The notes under the pieces were generated by a model. That model was not told the origin of the DNA, searched no databases, and was given only the letters and a program-made list of their open reading frames with translations. Made by a program: the position numbers and the translations under genes. From positions 1-39,013 of the IMG/VR virus record IMGVR_UViG_3300025536_000148: DNA of 39,013 bases, one strand, 5' to 3'. This document shows positions 1 to 39,013 of this stretch, piece by piece. How positions within the stretch are numbered: the stretch's first letter is position 1; each line of letters opens with the position of its first letter. Origin of the DNA: a virus.

Positions 1-105
1 CGAGCGCGACGCCGAGGGCCGCGAGGTCTCTTTCGTCTGTGGCCAGGACCCGAAGAACCCGCGCTCCTGGCGCAGCGAGCGCGACGCCGAGGGCCGCGAG
101 ATCGC
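1..105. repeat. Terminal direct repeat, left copy
   Basis: These 105 bases are identical to 38909-39013. The frame of the repeat-protein gene continues exactly from the right copy into the sequence after base 105, as expected of a circular molecule opened at an arbitrary point. The overlap lies inside a 75-bp tandem array, and nearly the same stretch also occurs about 150 bp earlier, so the join could have gained or lost repeat units. Confidence 0.9.
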
Positions 106-316
106 ACGCGTCTATGGCGAGGACCCAACCGACCCCCGCTCGTGGCGCTACGAATACGATGCCGAGGGCCGCGTGGTCGCACGCGTCTATGGCGAGGACC
201 CAACCGACCCCCGCTCGTGGCGCTACGAATACGATGCCGAGGGCCGCGTGGTCTCCTGCGTCTATGGTGACGACCCTAAGAACCCGCGCTCCTGGCGCAG
301 GGATGATGGCCGATGA
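1..316 (+). CDS. YD-like tandem-repeat protein (3' part, continues from the window end)
   Basis: This is the open continuation of the gene starting at 38433. The frame begins at base 2, has no start codon here and stops with TGA at 314-316. It contributes the last units and the tail RDDGR. That tail is shared with the paralogue at 348-605, showing duplication of a common 3' end. The following gene has a GGAGG-GTG start 32 bases later. The two pieces should be read as one gene of the circular molecule. Confidence 0.85.
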   Translation, partial: ERDAEGREVSFVCGQDPKNPRSWRSERDAEGREIARVYGEDPTDPRSWRYEYDAEGRVVARVYGEDPTDPRSWRYEYDAEGRVVSCVYGDDPKNPRSWRRDDGR

Positions 317-347
317 AATTCCCGATCAAACACCGACGGAGGCTGTT

Positions 348-605
348 GTGAGCAAACCTAAATACGAGTACGACGCCGAAGGCCGCGATGTCGCCTGCAT
401 CTGGGAAGGCGATCCGAAGAACCCGCACTCTTGGCGCTACGAATACGATGCCGAGGGCCGCGTGGTCTCCTGCGTCTATGGCGAGGACCCAACCGACCCC
501 CGCTCGTGGCGCTACGAATACGATGCCGAGGGCCGCGAGGTCTCCTGCGTCTTTGGCCAGGACCCGAAGAACCCGCGCTCCTGGCGCAGGGATGATGGCC
601 GATGA
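348..605 (+). CDS. Short paralogue of the YD-like repeat protein
   Basis: The chosen start is GTG at 348, because GGAGG lies at 338-342 with a five-base spacer. The in-frame ATGs at 303/306 have no such site. The 85-residue product is MSKPK followed by three 25-residue units (363-587) and the tail RDDGR. It is a three-unit version of the ten-unit protein upstream. The bases around its stop are the same as those around the end of the first gene, so the pair arose by duplication of the 3' region. The stop overlaps the next start (ATGA at 602), implying translational coupling to the pentapeptide-repeat protein. Function unknown. Confidence 0.8.
   Translation: MSKPKYEYDAEGRDVACIWEGDPKNPHSWRYEYDAEGRVVSCVYGEDPTDPRSWRYEYDAEGREVSCVFGQDPKNPRSWRRDDGR
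363..587 (+). repeat. Three further 75-bp coding repeats
   Basis: Units at 363, 438 and 513 match those of the large array closely. Together with the large array they offer many substrates for homologous exchange. Confidence 0.85.
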
Positions 606-1273
606 AATTCCCGATCAAACACCGTTTCAGTGGCGATGTGATCTGCGAGATAGAACTGGATGCCAGCTACGAGAACGAGCCGCGATCCGTCCAGCTTGGC
701 GCAGCGGTAAAAATTGCTGTTTCGAAAAATATTAATCTCACCGGCGCGGACCTCGCCTACGCGAACCTCGCCTACGCGGACCTCGCCTACGCGAACCTCA
801 CCGACGCGAACCTCGCCTACGCGAACCTCGCCTATGCGGACCTCACCGACGCGAACCTCGCCTATGCGGACCTCGCCAACGCGAACCTCACCGACGCGAA
901 CCTCGCCTATGCGGACCTCACCGACGCGAACCTCGCCTACGCGAAGCTCACCCACGCGAAGCTCACCCACGCGAACCTCACCGGCGCGAACCTCACCGGA
1001 GCGGACATCGCCTACGCGAACCTCGCCAACGCGAACCTCGCCGGACAGGGCCTTTTGCAAATCAACGGCCTGCGCTGGCCCGTCCTCGTTACCCCGGAAT
1101 ATCTGAAAATCGGCTGCGAGCAGCACTCGCACGATTACTGGCGCAGTTTTGATGATCGTCGAATTTTGCAAATGGCCGGAAAGAACGCAGCGGAGTTTTG
1201 GGCGGACAATAAGACATGGCTGCTCGAACGCTGCGAGTGGGCGGCAGGGTTTCGGAAGAGGGGCGCGACATGA
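602..1273 (+). CDS. Pentapeptide-repeat protein
   Basis: 223 residues. Residues about 46-148 are some 21 consecutive A(D/N)Lxx-type pentapeptides, which in known members form a right-handed quadrilateral beta-helix. The C-terminal 75 residues form a separate domain (WPVLVTPEYLKIGCEQHS... then AAEFW and LLE) that recurs in phage pentapeptide proteins. The repeats are visible as 15-bp DNA units between about 740 and 1045. Some family members mimic DNA and bind gyrase, but nothing here proves that. The gene overlaps its neighbours by ATGA on the left and 4 bases on the right, so it is part of the same operon as the YD-like proteins. It is probably cytosolic, as no signal peptide is seen. Confidence 0.9.
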   Translation: MKFPIKHRFSGDVICEIELDASYENEPRSVQLGAAVKIAVSKNINLTGADLAYANLAYADLAYANLTDANLAYANLAYADLTDANLAYADLANANLTDANLAYADLTDANLAYAKLTHAKLTHANLTGANLTGADIAYANLANANLAGQGLLQINGLRWPVLVTPEYLKIGCEQHSHDYWRSFDDRRILQMAGKNAAEFWADNKTWLLERCEWAAGFRKRGAT

Positions 1274-2033: not shown

Positions 2034-2251
2034 GCCTGTTCCACGAGGCGAGGCTGTATTGGGAGGTTTGCCGCATCGCGTGGGGCGGCGACATTCATTC
2101 CCGCGCCGAGGCGTGCGGCACGCTCCGGTTTCTCGCCGTCAGGGGGAAGAGCAAAAGAATACGCGAGGCTTCCCAATCTACCCTGCGTGCGCTGGCAAAG
2201 CGGCTTGGGCTTGTCGATCACATGGCGCGCGAATACGGGAGGACACAGTGA
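2030..2251 (+). CDS. 73-residue hypothetical protein
   Basis: The ATG at 2030 overlaps the stop of the membrane peptide; the longer upstream reading is out of frame with the operon logic. The product is basic and helical (RIAWGGDIHSRAEACGTLRF, then RIREASQSTLRALAKRLGLV). No family is recognised. Confidence 0.65.
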   Translation: MSLFHEARLYWEVCRIAWGGDIHSRAEACGTLRFLAVRGKSKRIREASQSTLRALAKRLGLVDHMAREYGRTQ

Positions 2252-2316
2252 TCGCCTTCCTTCGCCGTTTGCACAGACGCGGATTCAGGTTCCTATTGTG
2301 GAGACTAAAGCTATGA
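2248..2316 (+). CDS. 22-residue basic nano-ORF
   Basis: GTG at 2248 overlaps the preceding TGA and the stop at 2314-2316 overlaps the ERF start. The peptide is Arg-rich (FLRRLHRRGFRF). It may only be a translational bridge to the recombination gene. Confidence 0.3.
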   Translation: MIAFLRRLHRRGFRFLLWRLKL

Positions 2317-3050
2317 CACAAATCGCAAAAATTCCAGAAGATGCACCCATCGAAGAGACTGTTTCCCTGATGCAGGTGATTGCGAGGGCGGCGCAAGACC
2401 CGCAAACCGATGTCGGAAAGATGGAGCGGCTGATGGCGATGCACGACCGAATTATCGAGCGCCGCGCCCAAACGGCATTCAATCTCGCCATGAAAGACGC
2501 CCAAGCGGAGATGACGGTCGTCGGGCTAGACGCAAACAACCCGTCCACGCGAAGTCGTTATGCCTCCTACGCCGCCCTCGACCGCGCCTTGCGTCCGATC
2601 TATACGCGGCACGGTTTCTCGTTGAGCTTTGATTCCGGTATCGGGGCGCCGGAGAATCATGTCCGCGTGCTCTGCTACGTGGGTCACAGCGAAGGGTTTA
2701 CCCGAACCTATCAGGTGGAGATGCCCGCCGACGGTAAGGGGGCAAAAGGCGGCGACGTGATGACAAAAACCCACGCCGCCGGGTCTGCGTTCGCTTACGG
2801 GCAGCGGTATCTGCTTAAACTGATTTTCAACGTCGCTACTGGTGAAAACGATGACGATGGAAACGCCGCCGGGGGGGCGATAATCACCGACGAACAGCGC
2901 GATGCACTCCTGGAGCTTGTGAATAAGACCGGCGCGGATGTTCGGAAATTCTGCGCGTATATGGGGGTCGATAGCATCTCATCAATCCCGGCCAAGCGTT
3001 ATGCGAATGCCGTGAGCGCGCTTGAGGCCAAAAAGGTGAAACAAGTATGA
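2313..3050 (+). CDS. erf: ERF-family ssDNA annealing protein
   Basis: 245 residues. The region MAMHDRIIERRAQTAFNLAM, followed by a block with SRYASYAALDRALRPIYTRHG, is the hallmark of the ERF superfamily of single-strand annealing proteins, related in role to lambda Beta. A middle block with GDVMTKTHAAGSAFAYGQRY and LLKLIFNVATGENDDDGN completes the core, and the C terminus is an ITDEQRDALLELV helical segment. It anneals homologous ssDNA during phage recombination and genome circularisation. It overlaps the YqaJ nuclease gene by ATGA, giving the usual two-component recombination pair. GGAG upstream at 2300-2303 supports ATG 2313. Confidence 0.92.
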   Translation: MTQIAKIPEDAPIEETVSLMQVIARAAQDPQTDVGKMERLMAMHDRIIERRAQTAFNLAMKDAQAEMTVVGLDANNPSTRSRYASYAALDRALRPIYTRHGFSLSFDSGIGAPENHVRVLCYVGHSEGFTRTYQVEMPADGKGAKGGDVMTKTHAAGSAFAYGQRYLLKLIFNVATGENDDDGNAAGGAIITDEQRDALLELVNKTGADVRKFCAYMGVDSISSIPAKRYANAVSALEAKKVKQV

Positions 3051-3688
3051 AACAAGGATCAGAAGAATGGCTGGCGGCGCGCCTCGGAAAAGTCACCGCG
3101 TCGCGGGTTGCCGACCTGACGGCCAGGACGAAAAGCGGGTATAGCGCGTCCCGTGAAAATTATATGGCGGAAATCGTCGCGGAACGTCTGACCGGCGCAC
3201 CGGCCGCTCAATACACGAATTCCGCAATGCAATGGGGGACAGACACGGAACCAAAGGCACGGGCGGCCTATGAATTCTACCGTGACATGGACGTAGTGGA
3301 GACGGGTTTTGTCGTCCATCCGATCATTCAAATGAGCGGCGCGTCCCCGGACGGGCTTGTCGGCGATGACGGCCTGGTCGAAATCAAATGCCCCAACACC
3401 GCGACGCACATCGACACGCTTCTGGGCCAAGCCGTGCCGGGAAAATACGTCAAGCAGATGCAGTGGCAAATGGCCTGCACGGGCCGGAAATGGTGCGACT
3501 TTGTTTCCTACGATCCCAGGCTGCCGGAAAATCTTCGGCTGTTCGTGCGCCGGGTCGATAAGGACGATCCGCTGGTCGTCGAACTGGGAAAAGAAATCGT
3601 CGCGTTCCTGGCGGAGACAGACGAAAAAATAATCAAGTTACTGCGGGTCGCAACCGGCGAAACGGATAACAAAAAAGGAGACTCCTGA
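3047..3688 (+). CDS. YqaJ-type lambda-exonuclease-like nuclease
   Basis: 213 residues. It starts KQGSEEWLAARLGKVTAS, the conserved N terminus of the YqaJ/lambda Exo family. A PD-(D/E)XK active site is visible: Glu near 68 (GTDTEPKA), Asp102 in GASPDG, and Glu112/Lys114 in VEIKCPN, with the QMQWQM helix at about 137-142. It resects dsDNA 5'-3' to feed the ERF protein encoded just upstream with a 4-base overlap. The family is usually 200-220 residues, so it looks intact. Confidence 0.92.
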   Translation: MKQGSEEWLAARLGKVTASRVADLTARTKSGYSASRENYMAEIVAERLTGAPAAQYTNSAMQWGTDTEPKARAAYEFYRDMDVVETGFVVHPIIQMSGASPDGLVGDDGLVEIKCPNTATHIDTLLGQAVPGKYVKQMQWQMACTGRKWCDFVSYDPRLPENLRLFVRRVDKDDPLVVELGKEIVAFLAETDEKIIKLLRVATGETDNKKGDS

Positions 3689-3933
3689 TGGCCTATGAAC
3701 CCAAGCCGAATAGCGGTGCGTTGTTCAAGAACGAGAAAACAAAACCCACGCAACCGGATTACACCGGGAACTGGACGGACGCCGCCGGGAAGGAGTGGCG
3801 GCTCGCCGCGTGGCTGAAGGACGGCAACGTTGGAAAGTTCCTATCTATCAGCGCGAGCGAGAAATTGATTGGCTCTAGGCCAAGACAAGAGACCAAGAGC
3901 CAAGATGATCTAGACGACGCCATTCCATTCTAA
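3688..3933 (+). CDS. Small ssDNA-metabolism protein with SSB-like acidic tail
   Basis: 81 residues. The body (MAYEPKPNSGALFKNEKTKP, then DYTGNW and EWRLAAWLKDGNVGKFLSI) matches a small phage protein family of OB-fold-like appearance, normally found beside recombination genes. The C terminus is DDLDDAIPF, closely resembling the DDDIPF tip that bacterial SSB uses to recruit partner proteins. It starts at TGATG right after the exonuclease, with GGAG upstream. Role inferred: an SSB-like or SSB-mimicking accessory of the ERF/YqaJ system. Confidence 0.75.
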   Translation: MAYEPKPNSGALFKNEKTKPTQPDYTGNWTDAAGKEWRLAAWLKDGNVGKFLSISASEKLIGSRPRQETKSQDDLDDAIPF

Positions 3934-4259: not shown

Positions 4260-4409
4260 TTTATGACCGGGGCGGCGTGGATTAGACACGCGGCGTGCAG
4301 GCAGGAATGTCTGGTTAACGCGCTCACTCAAGGGCCTCTTGCTAAGGAAAACCAAGCTGAACAGCCGGTAAGCAACCCGGCCTCCGGTCGCCAAACACGA
4401 GGAGTGAAC

Positions 4410-5099
4410 ATGACCAACCTACTTGCTTACCACAACGACCCAAAAATCAAGGCTGCCATCCTGGCCCAGCTTCAAGCCCATTACGATGCCGACGAGATTG
4501 TAAAGGGCCAATATTGGGAAGATGGGAAAGGCTGCGCCGTCGGCTGCACAATTCATTCCGGAGACCATATGGAGTATGAAGGCCGCTTTGGTATTCCTGT
4601 CATGCTGGCGCGCCTCGAAGATTGTATCTTTGAAGGCTTGCCAAACCATAAGGCAAAAAAATGGCCGCTTCGGTTTATGAACGCCATCGAACCGGGAGCC
4701 TACCTGTCGAGAGCTGGGTGGAAATTCCTCTATTGGCTCCTGACGGACGAAAAGGTGAACCCTGGGATTAGCCATCCATCCGTAAGCGAGGCTGTAAAGC
4801 AATGTGCCGACGTGTTGAATCCTCTTACGGAAGGTAGGCCGGTTGATAGAGGCGCGGCGAAAAGCGCGGCGAGCGCAGCGAGAAACGCGGCGAGAAGCGC
4901 GGCAAGAAACGCGGAGAGTGCGGCGTGGAGCGCAGCGAGGAGCGCGGCGTGGTGTGCGGAGAGCGCAGCGAGAAGCGCGGAGAGCGCGGCGGAGAGCGCG
5001 GCGAGAAACGCGGCGTGGAGCGCGGCGAGCGCGGCGAGAAACGCGGCGTATGTAAGAATGGCCGATAAACTGGTTGAGCTAATTGTAGGTGCGAGATGA
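4410..5099 (+). CDS. Phage protein with Ala-rich SAAR-type repeats
   Basis: Start ATG 4410 is preceded by GAGGAG at 4399-4404. An in-frame ATG at 4263 would add 49 residues but lacks a site, so 4260-4409 is probably a leader. Residues 1-140 form a globular domain (GCAVGCTIHSGDHMEYEGRF and AGWKFLYWLLTDEKV). Residues about 148-212 are imperfect four-residue repeats of S/N-A-A-R/W/E, forming a continuous amphipathic Ala-rich helix. The end is MADKLVELIVGAR. Such repeats are seen in other phage proteins of unknown role. The DNA of the repeat is very GC-rich and gives long false ORFs on both strands. Confidence 0.8.
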   Translation: MTNLLAYHNDPKIKAAILAQLQAHYDADEIVKGQYWEDGKGCAVGCTIHSGDHMEYEGRFGIPVMLARLEDCIFEGLPNHKAKKWPLRFMNAIEPGAYLSRAGWKFLYWLLTDEKVNPGISHPSVSEAVKQCADVLNPLTEGRPVDRGAAKSAASAARNAARSAARNAESAAWSAARSAAWCAESAARSAESAAESAARNAAWSAASAARNAAYVRMADKLVELIVGAR

Positions 5100-5720: not shown

Positions 5721-6029
5721 ATGCCAACCCACAGCCACCCGGCGCCGGAAAGATGCCTCACAGGGGCGGCCGCACGGATCACTGGACTCCAGGCCCGCAC
5801 CGTGCAGGATAAGGCCAAGAAGGGAGAAATCCCCGGAGCCGCCAAACTCGGCGGCATATGGACATTCGATCTGGCGAAGCTGCGGCGTTGGGTACGAAAT
5901 GGGGAGGTTAAATGCCGGAGCACCTCTATTGCCGCGGCGGCACCTGGTACGCCCATCTCCGCGTTCGAGGGCGGCTCTACCGAAGAAGCCTACGAACGTC
6001 TAATAAAACCACGGCAAAACGCCGCCTGA
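5721..6029 (+). CDS. xis: Excisionase-like helix-turn-helix protein
   Basis: 102 residues from ATG 5721; a GTG at 5691 is an alternative without a binding site. The segment LTGAAARITGLQARTVQDKA, then KKGEIPGAAKLGGIWTFDLA and KLRRWVR, is the MerR/AlpA-like winged HTH of small excisionases (Helix_17-like). The gene overlaps the integrase start by 118 bp in another frame, and that overlapping tail is of low complexity. It probably directs excision by binding near attP, and the overlap couples its synthesis to integrase. Confidence 0.75.
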   Translation: MPTHSHPAPERCLTGAAARITGLQARTVQDKAKKGEIPGAAKLGGIWTFDLAKLRRWVRNGEVKCRSTSIAAAAPGTPISAFEGGSTEEAYERLIKPRQNAA

Positions 6030-6979
6030 AGAAAATCCTAGAGGAGGCTTCCCACCTGCGCTTTCACGGGGAAGCCCGCCATGGCTGGAAGCACGCCGTC
6101 GTCCGGTGGGCGCAGGAGTACCCGGCCCAGGTCAAACCGGCCGCCATGAAGCGGTATCTGGTTTCCGTCCGCCAGCTCGACCCCTTCTTTGGCGGGGCCT
6201 ATCTCGACGAAATCACCCGGCGCCGGATCGCCGATTATGTCTCCGACCGCAAGAAGGCGGCAACGAACGCCACCATCCGGCGCGATCTGACGGCACTTTC
6301 CAGAATTCTGGCTTGTTGCGTTGCCTGGGGCTGGCTAGAGACGAATCCTGCCCGCGAATTCGACCGCACGGTGCTGCGCGAAAGACGCGACCCAATCGTG
6401 CCGCCATCCGATGATGACGTCGCCTGGTTCCTGACCTTCTGTCCTAAGAATTTTGCCAACGCCGTCCAGTTCCTCCGGCAGACCGGCATGAGGGCCGAAG
6501 AGGGGTTTTCCCTCGAACACGGCCAATGCGACCTTAAGCGCCATGAGATACTGTTGCCCCGGACCAAGACGAACCGGCCACGGGTGATACCGCTCGCCGA
6601 CCCCCTGCTCTCCGACGCCGGTATCACGTTAAGTATCACACAAAGACACCTGGCCTCCCCCTTCGTGTTCTGGCACGGCGACGGAAATCGCTATTGCAAT
6701 GTCGCATCCCGGTTCGCGGAGATCATGCGCCGGGCCGAGCAGGGGGCCATCGTCGAGAAGCGCCCATTCCAACGCTTTCGCTGCCATGATCTGCGACACA
6801 AATTTGCGGTCGAGTATCTGAAAGGCGGCGGCGATATTTACGCGCTCGCCAGGATATTGGGGCACTCCTCGGTCAAGACGACGGAAATCTACCTCGCCTA
6901 TACGAGCGAAGGAATATCCCAAAAAGTATCCCAGCAGCGGCGGTTTTCGGGCACGGGTGACGGCGAAGCGCCAATCTAA
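5912..6979 (+). CDS. int: Tyrosine-recombinase integrase
   Basis: 355 residues. The N-terminal domain (about 1-50) has the AP2-like MPEHLYCRGGTWYAHLRVRG start of arm-binding domains. Residues 55-145 form the core-binding SAM-like domain, and 165-335 the catalytic domain. All catalytic residues are present: Arg194 (TGMRAEEG), Lys219 (RTKTNR), His292-x-x-Arg295 (HDLRH), His318 (LGHSS) and Tyr327 nine residues later. It recombines attP with the host tRNA-Ser gene. attP lies 11 bp after the stop codon. Arm-type repeats lie within and after the gene. Confidence 0.95.
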   Translation: MPEHLYCRGGTWYAHLRVRGRLYRRSLRTSNKTTAKRRLKKILEEASHLRFHGEARHGWKHAVVRWAQEYPAQVKPAAMKRYLVSVRQLDPFFGGAYLDEITRRRIADYVSDRKKAATNATIRRDLTALSRILACCVAWGWLETNPAREFDRTVLRERRDPIVPPSDDDVAWFLTFCPKNFANAVQFLRQTGMRAEEGFSLEHGQCDLKRHEILLPRTKTNRPRVIPLADPLLSDAGITLSITQRHLASPFVFWHGDGNRYCNVASRFAEIMRRAEQGAIVEKRPFQRFRCHDLRHKFAVEYLKGGGDIYALARILGHSSVKTTEIYLAYTSEGISQKVSQQRRFSGTGDGEAPI

Positions 6980-7180
6980 CCCATTGAAATGGCGGAGGGA
7001 GAGGGATTCGAACCCTCGATAGGGCTTTACGCCCTATAACGGTTTAGCAAACCGCCGCGCAATTCCTGAAAAAACCCGCCAAAGCCAAAGATGCCTTAGA
7101 GTATTGCTGGTTTTTCGAGAGCGCGAGGGCCGCAAGCGGCGTGAACAAAGGCCGTCCGAAGTATCCCAAAGAGTATCACA
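6925..7180 (+). promoter_or_regulatory. Candidate integrase/excisionase arm sites
   Basis: The 9-mer AGTATC(C/A)CA occurs at 6925-6933, 7160-7168 and 7172-7180, flanking the attP core on both sides. A fourth copy, AGTATCACA, lies at 6632-6640 inside int. Direct repeats on both sides of a core are the expected arrangement of arm-type sites. Binding is inferred only from position and repetition. Confidence 0.5.
6990..7057 (-). other. attP core: 3' half of a tRNA-Ser(GCU) gene
   Basis: On the minus strand this reads as an anticodon arm with TTGCTAA loop (anticodon GCU), a long variable arm with a perfect 7-bp stem (ATAGGGC/GCCCTAT), the T-arm GAGGG-TTCGAAT-CCCTC, the acceptor strand TCCCTCC, discriminator G and encoded CCA. 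The D arm and 5' acceptor strand are absent upstream, so it is not a functional tRNA gene. It is the tRNA 3' segment that tyrosine integrases use as attachment core and that restores the host gene after integration. It directly follows int. Confidence 0.88.
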
Positions 7181-37618: not shown

Positions 37619-37825
37619 TTAGGCTGCCTGGCTGTCCTTGAAAAAATCGTTTGGTTGAACTTCGCCGCCCGTAGCCGCGCAGATTCGGCGGATCAGGTCA
37701 AAGGACGGGGCCTGCCCACCCGTCTCCACCCTCGACACGGTGGCTGCGGATGTGTGGGCCAGCTTAGCCACGTCGCTTAGGCTAAGAGAATTTCTCGCGC
37801 GGTATCGGCGTAATGGGTGTTCCAT
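37619..37825 (-). CDS. Cro-like HTH regulator
   Basis: 68 residues from ATG 37825 (a TTG at 37846 lies within the promoter). HPLRRYRARNSLSLSDVAKL, then AHTSAATVSRVETGGQAP, is a Cro/C1 HTH. The ATG is only about two bases after the predicted transcription start, and no Shine-Dalgarno sequence exists, so the mRNA is probably leaderless. Divergent from the CI-like gene; first gene of the replication operon. Confidence 0.82.
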   Translation of the reverse strand: MEHPLRRYRARNSLSLSDVAKLAHTSAATVSRVETGGQAPSFDLIRRICAATGGEVQPNDFFKDSQAA

Positions 37826-37833
37826 AATGGAGG

Positions 37834-37862
37834 TTATTACGCTCAACGAAACAGTGTGTCAA
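37834..37862 (-). promoter_or_regulatory. Strong promoter for the Cro-like gene
   Basis: On the minus strand: TTGACA (37862-37857), a 17-base spacer, TAATAA (37839-37834). This is near-perfect sigma70. Transcription would begin at about 37827. The -35 overlaps the CAGTGTG operator-like half-site. Confidence 0.82.
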
Positions 37863-37920: not shown

Positions 37921-38265
37921 GTGTCCTACCGGGCGTCAAAAAGAGGCGGGCTTAACCCCACGTTCATACGCGCGTGGCGGCAGCACCGCGGACTCTCGCT
38001 TGATCGACTGGTTGATCGGCTGGATGGGGTGATGCCGATTTCCAAGGCAACCTTGAGCAGAATAGAAACCGGCAAACAGCCCTATACACAGGACACCCTG
38101 GAAGCTCTGGCGTGGGCGCTGAACTGTGAGCCGGCCGACCTGATTATGCGCGACCCAACAAGCGAGGCGTGGTCCATCTGGGACGACCTGAAGAAAATGC
38201 CGCCAGAACAGCGCAAGCGGGCCATTAAAATTCTTAGGGCTCTGGCTGACGATGAGGCGGCATAG
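37921..38265 (+). CDS. CI-like XRE repressor
   Basis: 114 residues from GTG 37921. FIRAWRQHRGLSLDRLVDRL, then ISKATLSRIETGKQPYTQDT and LEALAWALNCEPADLI, is a canonical HTH. The C terminus (DDLKKMPPEQRKRAIKILRA) is a helix for dimerisation; there is no LexA-type autocleavage domain, so RecA-triggered cleavage is not expected. With its -10 box ending six bases before GTG and no Shine-Dalgarno, the mRNA is probably leaderless, as lambda cI made from PRM. It would hold the lysogenic state. Confidence 0.8.
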   Translation: MSYRASKRGGLNPTFIRAWRQHRGLSLDRLVDRLDGVMPISKATLSRIETGKQPYTQDTLEALAWALNCEPADLIMRDPTSEAWSIWDDLKKMPPEQRKRAIKILRALADDEAA

Positions 38266-38379: not shown

Positions 38380-38408
38380 TTGACGCGTGGTTTCATTGTG
38401 TGTAACGT
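38380..38408 (+). promoter_or_regulatory. Promoter of the rightward early operon
   Basis: TTGACG at 38380-38385, a 17-base spacer and TAACGT at 38403-38408. It is followed after 24 bp by the ATG of the repeat-protein gene. The spacer and -10 contain TTGTGTGTAACG, similar to the CAGTGTG half-sites, so the CI-like protein may control it. The rest of 38266-38432 holds no gene that I can support. Confidence 0.72.
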
Positions 38409-38432
38409 ACCTCCAACACTACGGAGGCGAAG

Positions 38433-39013
38433 ATGCAAACAATTGAAAAATCCACCTACGAATACGACGCCGAGGGCCGCGAGGTTGCCTGCGTCTTTGG
38501 CCAGGACCCGAAGAACCCGCGCTCCTGGCGCAGAGAGTACGACGCCGAGGGCCGCGAGGTCTCCTGCGTCTGTGGCCAGGACCCGAAGAACCCGCGCTCC
38601 TGGCGCAGCGAGCGCGACGCCGAGGGCCGCTTGGTCGCATGCGTCTATGGTGACGACTCCAAGAACCCGGACTCATGGCGCAGCGAGCGCGACGCCGAGG
38701 GCCGCTTGGTCGCATGCGTCTATGGTGACGACTCCAAGAACCCGCTTTCCTGGCGCAGAGAGTACGACGCCGAGGGCCGCGAGGTCTCTTTCGTCTGTGG
38801 CCAGGACCCGAAGAACCCGCGCTCCTGGCGCAGCGAGCGCGACGCCGAGGGCCGCGAGATCGCACGCGTCTATGGTGACGACCCTAAGAACCCGGACTCA
38901 TGGCGCAGCGAGCGCGACGCCGAGGGCCGCGAGGTCTCTTTCGTCTGTGGCCAGGACCCGAAGAACCCGCGCTCCTGGCGCAGCGAGCGCGACGCCGAGG
39001 GCCGCGAGATCGC
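38433..39013 (+). CDS. YD-like 25-residue tandem-repeat protein (5' part, runs off the end)
   Basis: The start is ATG at 38433, with GGAGG five bases upstream and a promoter at 38380-38408. The leader MQTIEKST is followed by head-to-tail 25-residue units. Each unit reads roughly [YRS]-E-[YR]-DAEGR, then V(A/S)-x-V-x-G-x-D, then P-x-SWR. Joined to 1-316 the gene encodes 263 residues with ten units and ends in RDDGR. The YxYDAEGR core recalls RHS/YD repeats, but the unit is longer and the protein has no signal peptide, so membership of that family is only a resemblance. It is the first gene of the rightward early operon. Its function is unknown; possibilities are a host-interaction or anti-defence protein (inference). 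Cys residues recur at one position in several units. Confidence 0.85.
   Translation, partial: MQTIEKSTYEYDAEGREVACVFGQDPKNPRSWRREYDAEGREVSCVCGQDPKNPRSWRSERDAEGRLVACVYGDDSKNPDSWRSERDAEGRLVACVYGDDSKNPLSWRREYDAEGREVSFVCGQDPKNPRSWRSERDAEGREIARVYGDDPKNPDSWRSERDAEGREVSFVCGQDPKNPRSWRSERDAEGREI
38457..39013 (+). repeat. 75-bp tandem coding repeats
   Basis: Units begin at 38457, 38532, 38607, 38682, 38757, 38832, 38907 and 38982, then continue at 149 and 224 across the junction. There are ten units in all, each 75 bp (25 codons), without spacers. Adjacent units alternate between Q-D-P and D-D-S/P variants, and part of the array repeats as a 150-bp pair, indicating recent unequal exchange. Confidence 0.9.
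38909..39013. repeat. Terminal direct repeat, right copy
   Basis: Exact copy of bases 1-105. Removing one copy gives a circle of 38,908 bp. It is more likely an assembly overlap than a physical terminal repeat, because it falls mid-gene rather than near a terminase site. Confidence 0.9.

What the first reader, a model, noticed from the sequence alone, without database searches (positions are those of the whole stretch)
38433..39013. A phage protein built of ten 25-residue YD-like repeats
The gene (38433 through the junction to 316) encodes almost nothing but units [YRS]E[YR]DAEGR...P-x-SWR without a signal peptide. Classic RHS/YD proteins are large and exported, so a small cytosolic early-gene version is unusual. 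The first position in the early operon suggests a role in early takeover or defence evasion. Novelty and function are inference.
Basis: partly seen in the sequence, partly recalled or inferred. Interest (0 to 1): 0.78.

Follow-up and report, generated by a model that had tools for sequence, protein, structure and literature searches.

The report
Small phage proteins of YD repeats
Near the start of the early genes of a temperate phage sit two genes that encode nothing but copies of a 25-residue beta-hairpin related to the repeat of large bacterial surface and toxin-carrying proteins; the same kind of small free-standing protein turned up in only two other phage types among millions of viral contigs, and what it does is unknown.

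Summary
The record's ends share an exact 105-bp repeat inside the array; merging it gives one 263-residue ORF (38433-39013, then 106-316) with ten 25-residue units. The copy number is uncertain because the assembly ends inside the array. A second gene (348-605) with three units was missed. By profile the unit is an RHS/YD repeat (PF05593, 72 bits against a cut-off of 22; TIGR01643, 49 against 15.8), but there is no Rhs core, cargo or signal-like N terminus. AlphaFold predicts two strands per unit; Foldseek matches Rhs effectors, teneurins, OspA and MORN-type sheets. IMG/VR scans found homologues in only two other phage types: G001 (four genes, of 1, 1, 8 and 10 units) and L159 (four units). 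In the window and G001 the genes run towards an SSB gene. In both, positions 1, 9, 12 and 22 vary while a YD core is fixed. Best reading: an acidic cytosolic beta-ribbon, probably made early, that binds a partner through its repeated surface. Expression, target and function are inference. A new variant of a known repeat kind.

The parts
38433..39013 (+). 5' part of the ten-unit YD-repeat gene (MQTIEKST + units 1-7 and part of 8)
1..316 (+). 3' part of the ten-unit gene (1-105 repeat the record end; 106-316 is new: rest of unit 8, units 9-10, RDDGR stop)
348..605 (+). second gene, GTG start, 85 aa, three 25-residue units
   Evidence: PF05593 E 9.9e-9
1..105 (.). terminal direct repeat of the record, left copy, inside the array
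38909..39013 (.). terminal direct repeat of the record, right copy, inside the array
278..335 (+). 58-nt duplicated gene end plus start of the downstream pentapeptide gene, copy 1
567..624 (+). 58-nt duplicated segment, copy 2 (continues into the pentapeptide gene)
38380..38408 (+). promoter-like TTGACG-17-TAACGT before the array gene (by eye; not reported by the consensus scan)
   Evidence: inference
38421..38427 (+). ACGGAGG ribosome-binding site of the ten-unit gene
336..342 (+). ACGGAGG ribosome-binding site of the three-unit gene
602..1273 (+). next gene: pentapeptide-repeat protein (PF00805)
37921..38265 (+). HTH regulator just upstream
37622..37846 (-). divergent HTH regulator
2187..3050 (+). 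Erf-like ssDNA annealing protein downstream in the same direction
3047..3933 (+). RecE-like exonuclease (3047-3688) and SSB-like protein (3688-3933)

Best explanation
The two genes encode small free-standing RHS/YD-type beta-hairpin repeat proteins. Each 25-residue unit is a hairpin (strands at unit positions 24-3 and 9-14) plus a DPxNPxSW loop, and the units stack into one extended acidic beta-ribbon, open-ended and too small to make the closed Rhs cocoon. They are probably made in the infected cell's cytoplasm together with the early recombination genes. The most likely mode of action is binding a host or phage protein along the ribbon, with each unit offering the same contacts and a few variable positions (1, 9, 12, 22) tuning the surface; unit number and gene copies change by recombination between units. 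Shown or predicted from sequence: repeat structure, profile membership, predicted fold, homologues in two other phage types, conservation of the protein, position-specific variation, gene neighbourhood. Inferred: early expression, cytoplasmic location, binding role. Unknown: the partner and what binding achieves (recombination helper, host takeover or counter-defence). The confidence given is for the whole statement including the binding role; for the identity as free-standing YD-repeat proteins alone it would be about 0.9.
For: Profiles: PF05593 3.5e-20, 72.3 bits; TIGR01643 4e-13. Fold: pLDDT 86.8, pTM 0.73 for the 193-aa window protein and 90.7, 0.78 for the L159 homologue, with Foldseek hits among Rhs effectors and teneurins and MORN-repeat proteins. 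Homologues: G001 with genes of 8, 10, 1 and 1 units and L159 with 4 units and 45% identity to the window three-unit protein; a motif scan of all IMG/VR hit only these and the sister contig G002. Protein-level constraint: E2, D4, G7, D17, P21, S23 and R25 invariant in window and G001; S23 coded TCN in the window and AGC in G001; third codon positions differ most between phages. Variation: positions with at least three residues are {1,9,12,14,16,22} in the window and {1,9,12,22} in G001, hypergeometric p = 0.0012. Neighbourhood: window Erf, RecE-like exonuclease and SSB; G001 10-unit gene, then 1-unit gene, then an SSB gene (SSB read from sequence); the L159 fragment carries an SSB-type gene about 8 kb away and SbcC/D-, RecA- and RuvC-like genes read from sequence.
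Against: No expression, binding or localisation data. Early-gene neighbourhood is shared by many unrelated phage genes. The best PDB hit for the longer model is engineered OspA (TMq 0.59), and Rhs proteins align over its length only poorly (TMq 0.2-0.3), so the long-range shape is uncertain. Single-unit genes in G001 (32 and 38 aa) fit poorly with a long-ribbon mechanism unless they oligomerise or are remnants. Shared variable positions could be old unit variants kept in both lineages and not fresh diversification; the rank correlation of per-position entropy is only 0.37 (p 0.07; permutation p 0.011). The overall pN/pS between the phages, 0.70, is not strongly purifying.
Confidence: 0.4

Rival explanations
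1. Recombination-driven repeat expansion with little function: a 75-bp unit that expands and is tolerated because it stays in frame.
For: Arrays and gene copies are plainly recombination products; within-G001 pN/pS is about 1; two single-unit genes in G001.
Against: Same 25-residue period and YD core in three phage types at about 40-50% identity, codon switch at a conserved serine, own ribosome-binding sites, confident predicted fold in both proteins tested.
Confidence: 0.2
2. Virion or tail-associated protein using YD hairpins for adhesion or sugar binding, like the small phage proteins that end in 2-3 YD hairpins.
For: Such phage proteins exist in many viral contigs, and one matches tail families weakly.
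Against: The window genes lie among recombination genes and not in the structural cluster (minus strand, about 11-27 kb); they lack the N-terminal region of the other small phage YD proteins.
Confidence: 0.12
3. Early counter-defence or host-takeover inhibitor (for instance an acidic mimic of nucleic acid, as some pentapeptide-repeat proteins are known to be).
For: Early neighbourhood; negative charge at pH 7 of the multi-unit proteins (-11.5, -15.8, -12.1 for window, G001 and L159); adjacent pentapeptide-repeat gene; rare and patchy distribution.
Against: Charge per unit is only about -1 to -3 with many arginines; no convincing match to defence-system models; pentapeptide gene absent from G001.
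Confidence: 0.2
4. The DNA array itself is the functional element (iterons, origin or recombination hot spot), and the protein is a by-product.
For: Arrays sit near recombination and replication genes; G001 arrays are flanked by a shared 22-26 bp sequence.
Against: Between phages DNA diverges most at third codon positions while the protein pattern is kept; the L159 array has only four units.
Confidence: 0.06

Closest known systems
RHS/YD repeat (Pfam PF05593, TIGR01643) in Rhs effectors, WapA, teneurins, Tc toxin BC subunits
   Same: Hairpin unit with YDxxGR turn; profile scores above curated cut-offs; same local fold by Foldseek (Rhs effectors TMq about 0.6 for the L159 model).
   Different: Here 3-10 near-identical 25-residue units and almost nothing else; no Rhs core domain, no cargo, no secretion domain, no closed cocoon; in a phage early region.
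MORN and MORN-like (YwqK antitoxin-type) repeat proteins of viruses and bacteria
   Same: Free-standing open beta-hairpin ribbons; MORN repeats are 23 residues with two strands each (PMC7725318); best BFVD matches.
   Different: Different unit signature (D..GR...DP.NP.SW instead of GxG/YEGEW); no Pfam MORN match.
Small phage proteins with an extra N-terminal part and 2-3 C-terminal YD hairpins (e.g. in L163, L165, L167, L188)
   Same: Small, phage-borne, YD hairpins.
   Different: Few hairpins of less regular spacing, with an N-terminal part; weak or no PHROG matches; genome position not examined.
Homologues found here: IMGVR_UViG_3300038334_000010 (G001), 3300038336_000031 (G002), 3300035698_005981 (L159)
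   Same: Same 25-residue unit and whole-protein architecture; G001 and window genes both lie upstream of SSB genes; L159 protein starts MQT like the window protein.
   Different: Unit number 1-10; different phage types; the L159 gene stands alone after a GroES-like gene.

Membership tests
RHS/YD repeat (as a repeat type) | Score above curated cut-off of PF05593 / TIGR01643 | tested here: met
   72.3 v 22 bits and 49.2 v 15.8 bits; the homologues also pass PF05593 (47.4 and 23.3 bits)
RHS/YD repeat (as a repeat type) | YDxxGR beta-hairpin | tested here: met
   D4 and G7 invariant, two strands per unit
Rhs protein / Rhs effector | Rhs-associated core domain and large size | tested here: not met
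   NCBIfam scan gave only the YD repeat over its cut-off; 263 and 85 aa
Rhs protein / Rhs effector | Closed cocoon holding a C-terminal toxin | tested here: not met
   No sequence outside the units except MQTIEKST and RDDGR, so no cargo; model is a run of hairpins
Rhs protein / Rhs effector | Export (signal peptide or secretion-system N terminus) | tested here: not met
   N termini MQTIEKSTYEYD and MSKPKYEYD, no hydrophobic stretch; by inspection, no dedicated predictor available
MORN repeat protein | Pfam MORN profile match | tested here: not met
   No MORN family in scans up to E 10
MORN repeat protein | Single-sheet ribbon of hairpins | tested here: met
   Foldseek BFVD hits; a works-like resemblance only
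Anti-defence protein | Inhibits a host defence | not testable with these tools
   PADLOC gave no convincing match, and it models defence, not counter-defence

The most novel reading that the evidence does not exclude
The proteins are modular recognition ribbons whose units carry a fixed frame and a small set of positions kept variable by selection, so that recombination between units changes what the phage protein binds, in the way other repeat proteins diversify, and phages use them early against host factors.
Probability: 0.15. Interest if true: 0.75.

Novelty: new variant of a known kind. Interest (0 to 1): 0.5.

Why it matters
YD/RHS repeats are known from big exported proteins that wrap toxins or act at the cell surface. 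Stand-alone YD ribbons in phage early regions, recurrent in unrelated phages and with variation focused on the same positions, would show a second use of the repeat and give a compact, easily expressed system for asking what an isolated YD ribbon binds. The family was found in only three phage types (window included) in IMG/VR and in no record of the INPHARED phage set, and I found no name or function attached to it.

Tried and rejected
Direct join at the record ends (gives a broken unit; replaced by merging the 105-bp overlap). Pfam HemS, Enterochelin_N, DUF4258, PADLOC Csm3 and PHROG hits: short stretches summed over many near-identical units, judged artefacts of repetition. Klebsiella plasmid matches: a tandem repeat of another period (WRxNxxADGAxPQR), antisense to the annotated genes, chance likeness; not pursued. 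Nitratiruptor tail fibre match: a different, longer repeat. Actinobacterial and acidobacterial hits are ordinary large Rhs-type proteins; Burkholderia plasmid hits are mostly annotated as such. phrog_38549: only short partial matches in G001 and none in the window or L159. Kin searches in prokaryote genomes could not be centred on a virus record or a locus. Host not determined: the terminase is nearest to Rhizobium phages (48%), and a tRNA-Ser next to the integrase suggests an attachment site. Literature searches found no description of small phage YD-only proteins. No Rfam match in the window.

Full report
What is there. The window is a virus record of 39,013 bp that looks like a temperate tailed phage: integrase, Erf annealing protein, RecE-like exonuclease, SSB, replication initiation protein, terminase and major head protein. 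Its first and last 105 bases are identical, and this terminal repeat lies inside a 75-bp tandem array. Merging the overlap gives a single ORF from ATG 38433 over the record end to the stop at 316: MQTIEKST, ten units of exactly 25 residues, then RDDGR, 263 aa. Joining the ends without merging gives a unit about 15 residues short. As 105 bp is only 1.4 units, an assembler could have dropped or added units here, so 'ten' is the best reading and not a measured number. G001, found below, shows the same behaviour: its ends share 97 bp, again inside an array.

A second gene follows. GTG 348 to 605 encodes three more units with the same RDDGR end. Both genes have ACGGAGG before the start codon. Fifty-eight identical bases cover the end of each gene and the first bases of the following pentapeptide gene (278-335 and 567-624), so the pair arose by a local duplication that took in the start of its neighbour.

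Chance and coding. Self-identity at lag 25 is 73% against 8% in shuffles. The reading frame is supported by comparison between phages: differences at third, first and second codon positions are 0.41, 0.39, 0.32 for window-G001, 0.51, 0.39, 0.34 for window-L159 and 0.59, 0.39, 0.38 for G001-L159. The invariant serine at position 23 is TCN in the window and AGC in G001, which needs two base changes. The signal is moderate: pN/pS between the window and G001 is 0.70.

What the unit is. It scores far above the curated cut-offs of the RHS repeat and YD_repeat_2x. Nothing else of an Rhs protein is present. AlphaFold2 with a shallow alignment gives pLDDT 86.8 for 193 residues of the window protein, two strands per unit, and 90.7 for the L159 homologue. 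Foldseek puts the L159 model on Rhs effectors and teneurins and the longer model on OspA, teneurin, Rhs proteins and viral MORN-repeat proteins. The result is an open ribbon of YD hairpins.

Relatives. There is no match in 50,697 phage records with the window protein or the L159 protein, and only unrelated repeats with the G001 protein. Pattern scans of IMG/VR found G001 with its sister contig G002, and L159. A final motif scan (D-x2-G-R-x-[IV]-[AS]-x2-Y-[AG]-x-D-P) of the whole collection returned only these contigs. G001 (59 kb) has genes of 8 and 10 units and two of a single unit (32 and 38 aa). The 10-unit gene and one single-unit gene share a promoter-like sequence that occurs only at these two places in that genome, and a 22-26 bp sequence lies beside the copies. 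L159 (10 kb, a fragment whose SSB-type protein is 38% identical to that of Vibrio phage SSP002 and kin) has a clean 104-aa gene of four units after a GroES-like gene, with terminator-like hairpins on either side by eye. One scan of 84,980 bacterial and archaeal genomes with the window unit returned twelve loci, all Rhs-type YD-repeat proteins with ordinary irregular repeats.

Variation. Positions 2, 4, 7, 17, 21, 23 and 25 are invariant in window and G001. Positions 1, 9, 12 and 22 carry at least three residues in each phage separately; that overlap has p = 0.0012 by hypergeometric count. By strand alternation positions 1, 3, 9 and 11 should lie on one face, with 22 in the loop; this is inference, as coordinates could not be inspected. 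The alternative is old unit variants inherited by both phages; residues shared at these positions (Y1, L/V9, C/R12, D22) are compatible with that.

Neighbourhood. In the window the genes precede the pentapeptide gene, Erf, exonuclease and SSB in one direction. In G001 the 10-unit gene is followed by a single-unit gene and an SSB gene, and the 8-unit gene by a gene matching RusA-like and clamp-like profiles. The L159 fragment also carries SSB-, RecA-, RuvC- and SbcCD-like genes (names other than SSB read from sequence). This argues for an early role close to DNA metabolism, but phage early regions are full of unrelated small genes.

Mechanism. I think a cytosolic binding ribbon is most likely: no signal-like N terminus, net acidic and strongly hydrophilic, early genes around it, and a repeat whose known relatives act through their surface. 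What it binds cannot be told from sequence. A helper of the phage's own recombination and a host inhibitor are both open; defence evasion remains a guess.

Verdict. It is a new variant of a known repeat kind, rare, recurrent in unrelated phages, and worth a simple biochemical test.

Noticed in passing
window 602-1273: Pentapeptide-repeat protein gene directly downstream; its first bases were copied along with the YD gene duplication. No pentapeptide match in G001.
   Followed up: partly
window 6990-7080 (-), next to integrase 5912-6979: tRNA-Ser(GCT)-like gene with an odd 5' half beside the integrase, probably the attachment site copied from the host tRNA gene; could identify the host.
   Followed up: no
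L163, L165, L167, L188, L191, L208 and others: A recurrent class of about 110-230 aa phage proteins with an extra N-terminal part and 2-3 C-terminal YD hairpins; PHROG matches weak (unknown, tail).
   Followed up: partly
G001 (L125-L127): 393-418(-), 40790-40815(+), 40924-40949(+), 53575-53600(-), 58829-58854(-): A shared GCGTAGCGCCCGGCCTGCACAC sequence lies beside the YD genes on one or both sides, as if the genes moved or were copied with it.
   Followed up: partly
L159 484-792 (-): Phage GroES-like co-chaperonin (Cpn10) gene just upstream of the four-unit YD gene.
   Followed up: no
window 4848-5050: Another imperfect tandem array (12/33-bp period, AGAAGCGCGGCG-like) inside the ORF 4263-5099.
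   Followed up: no
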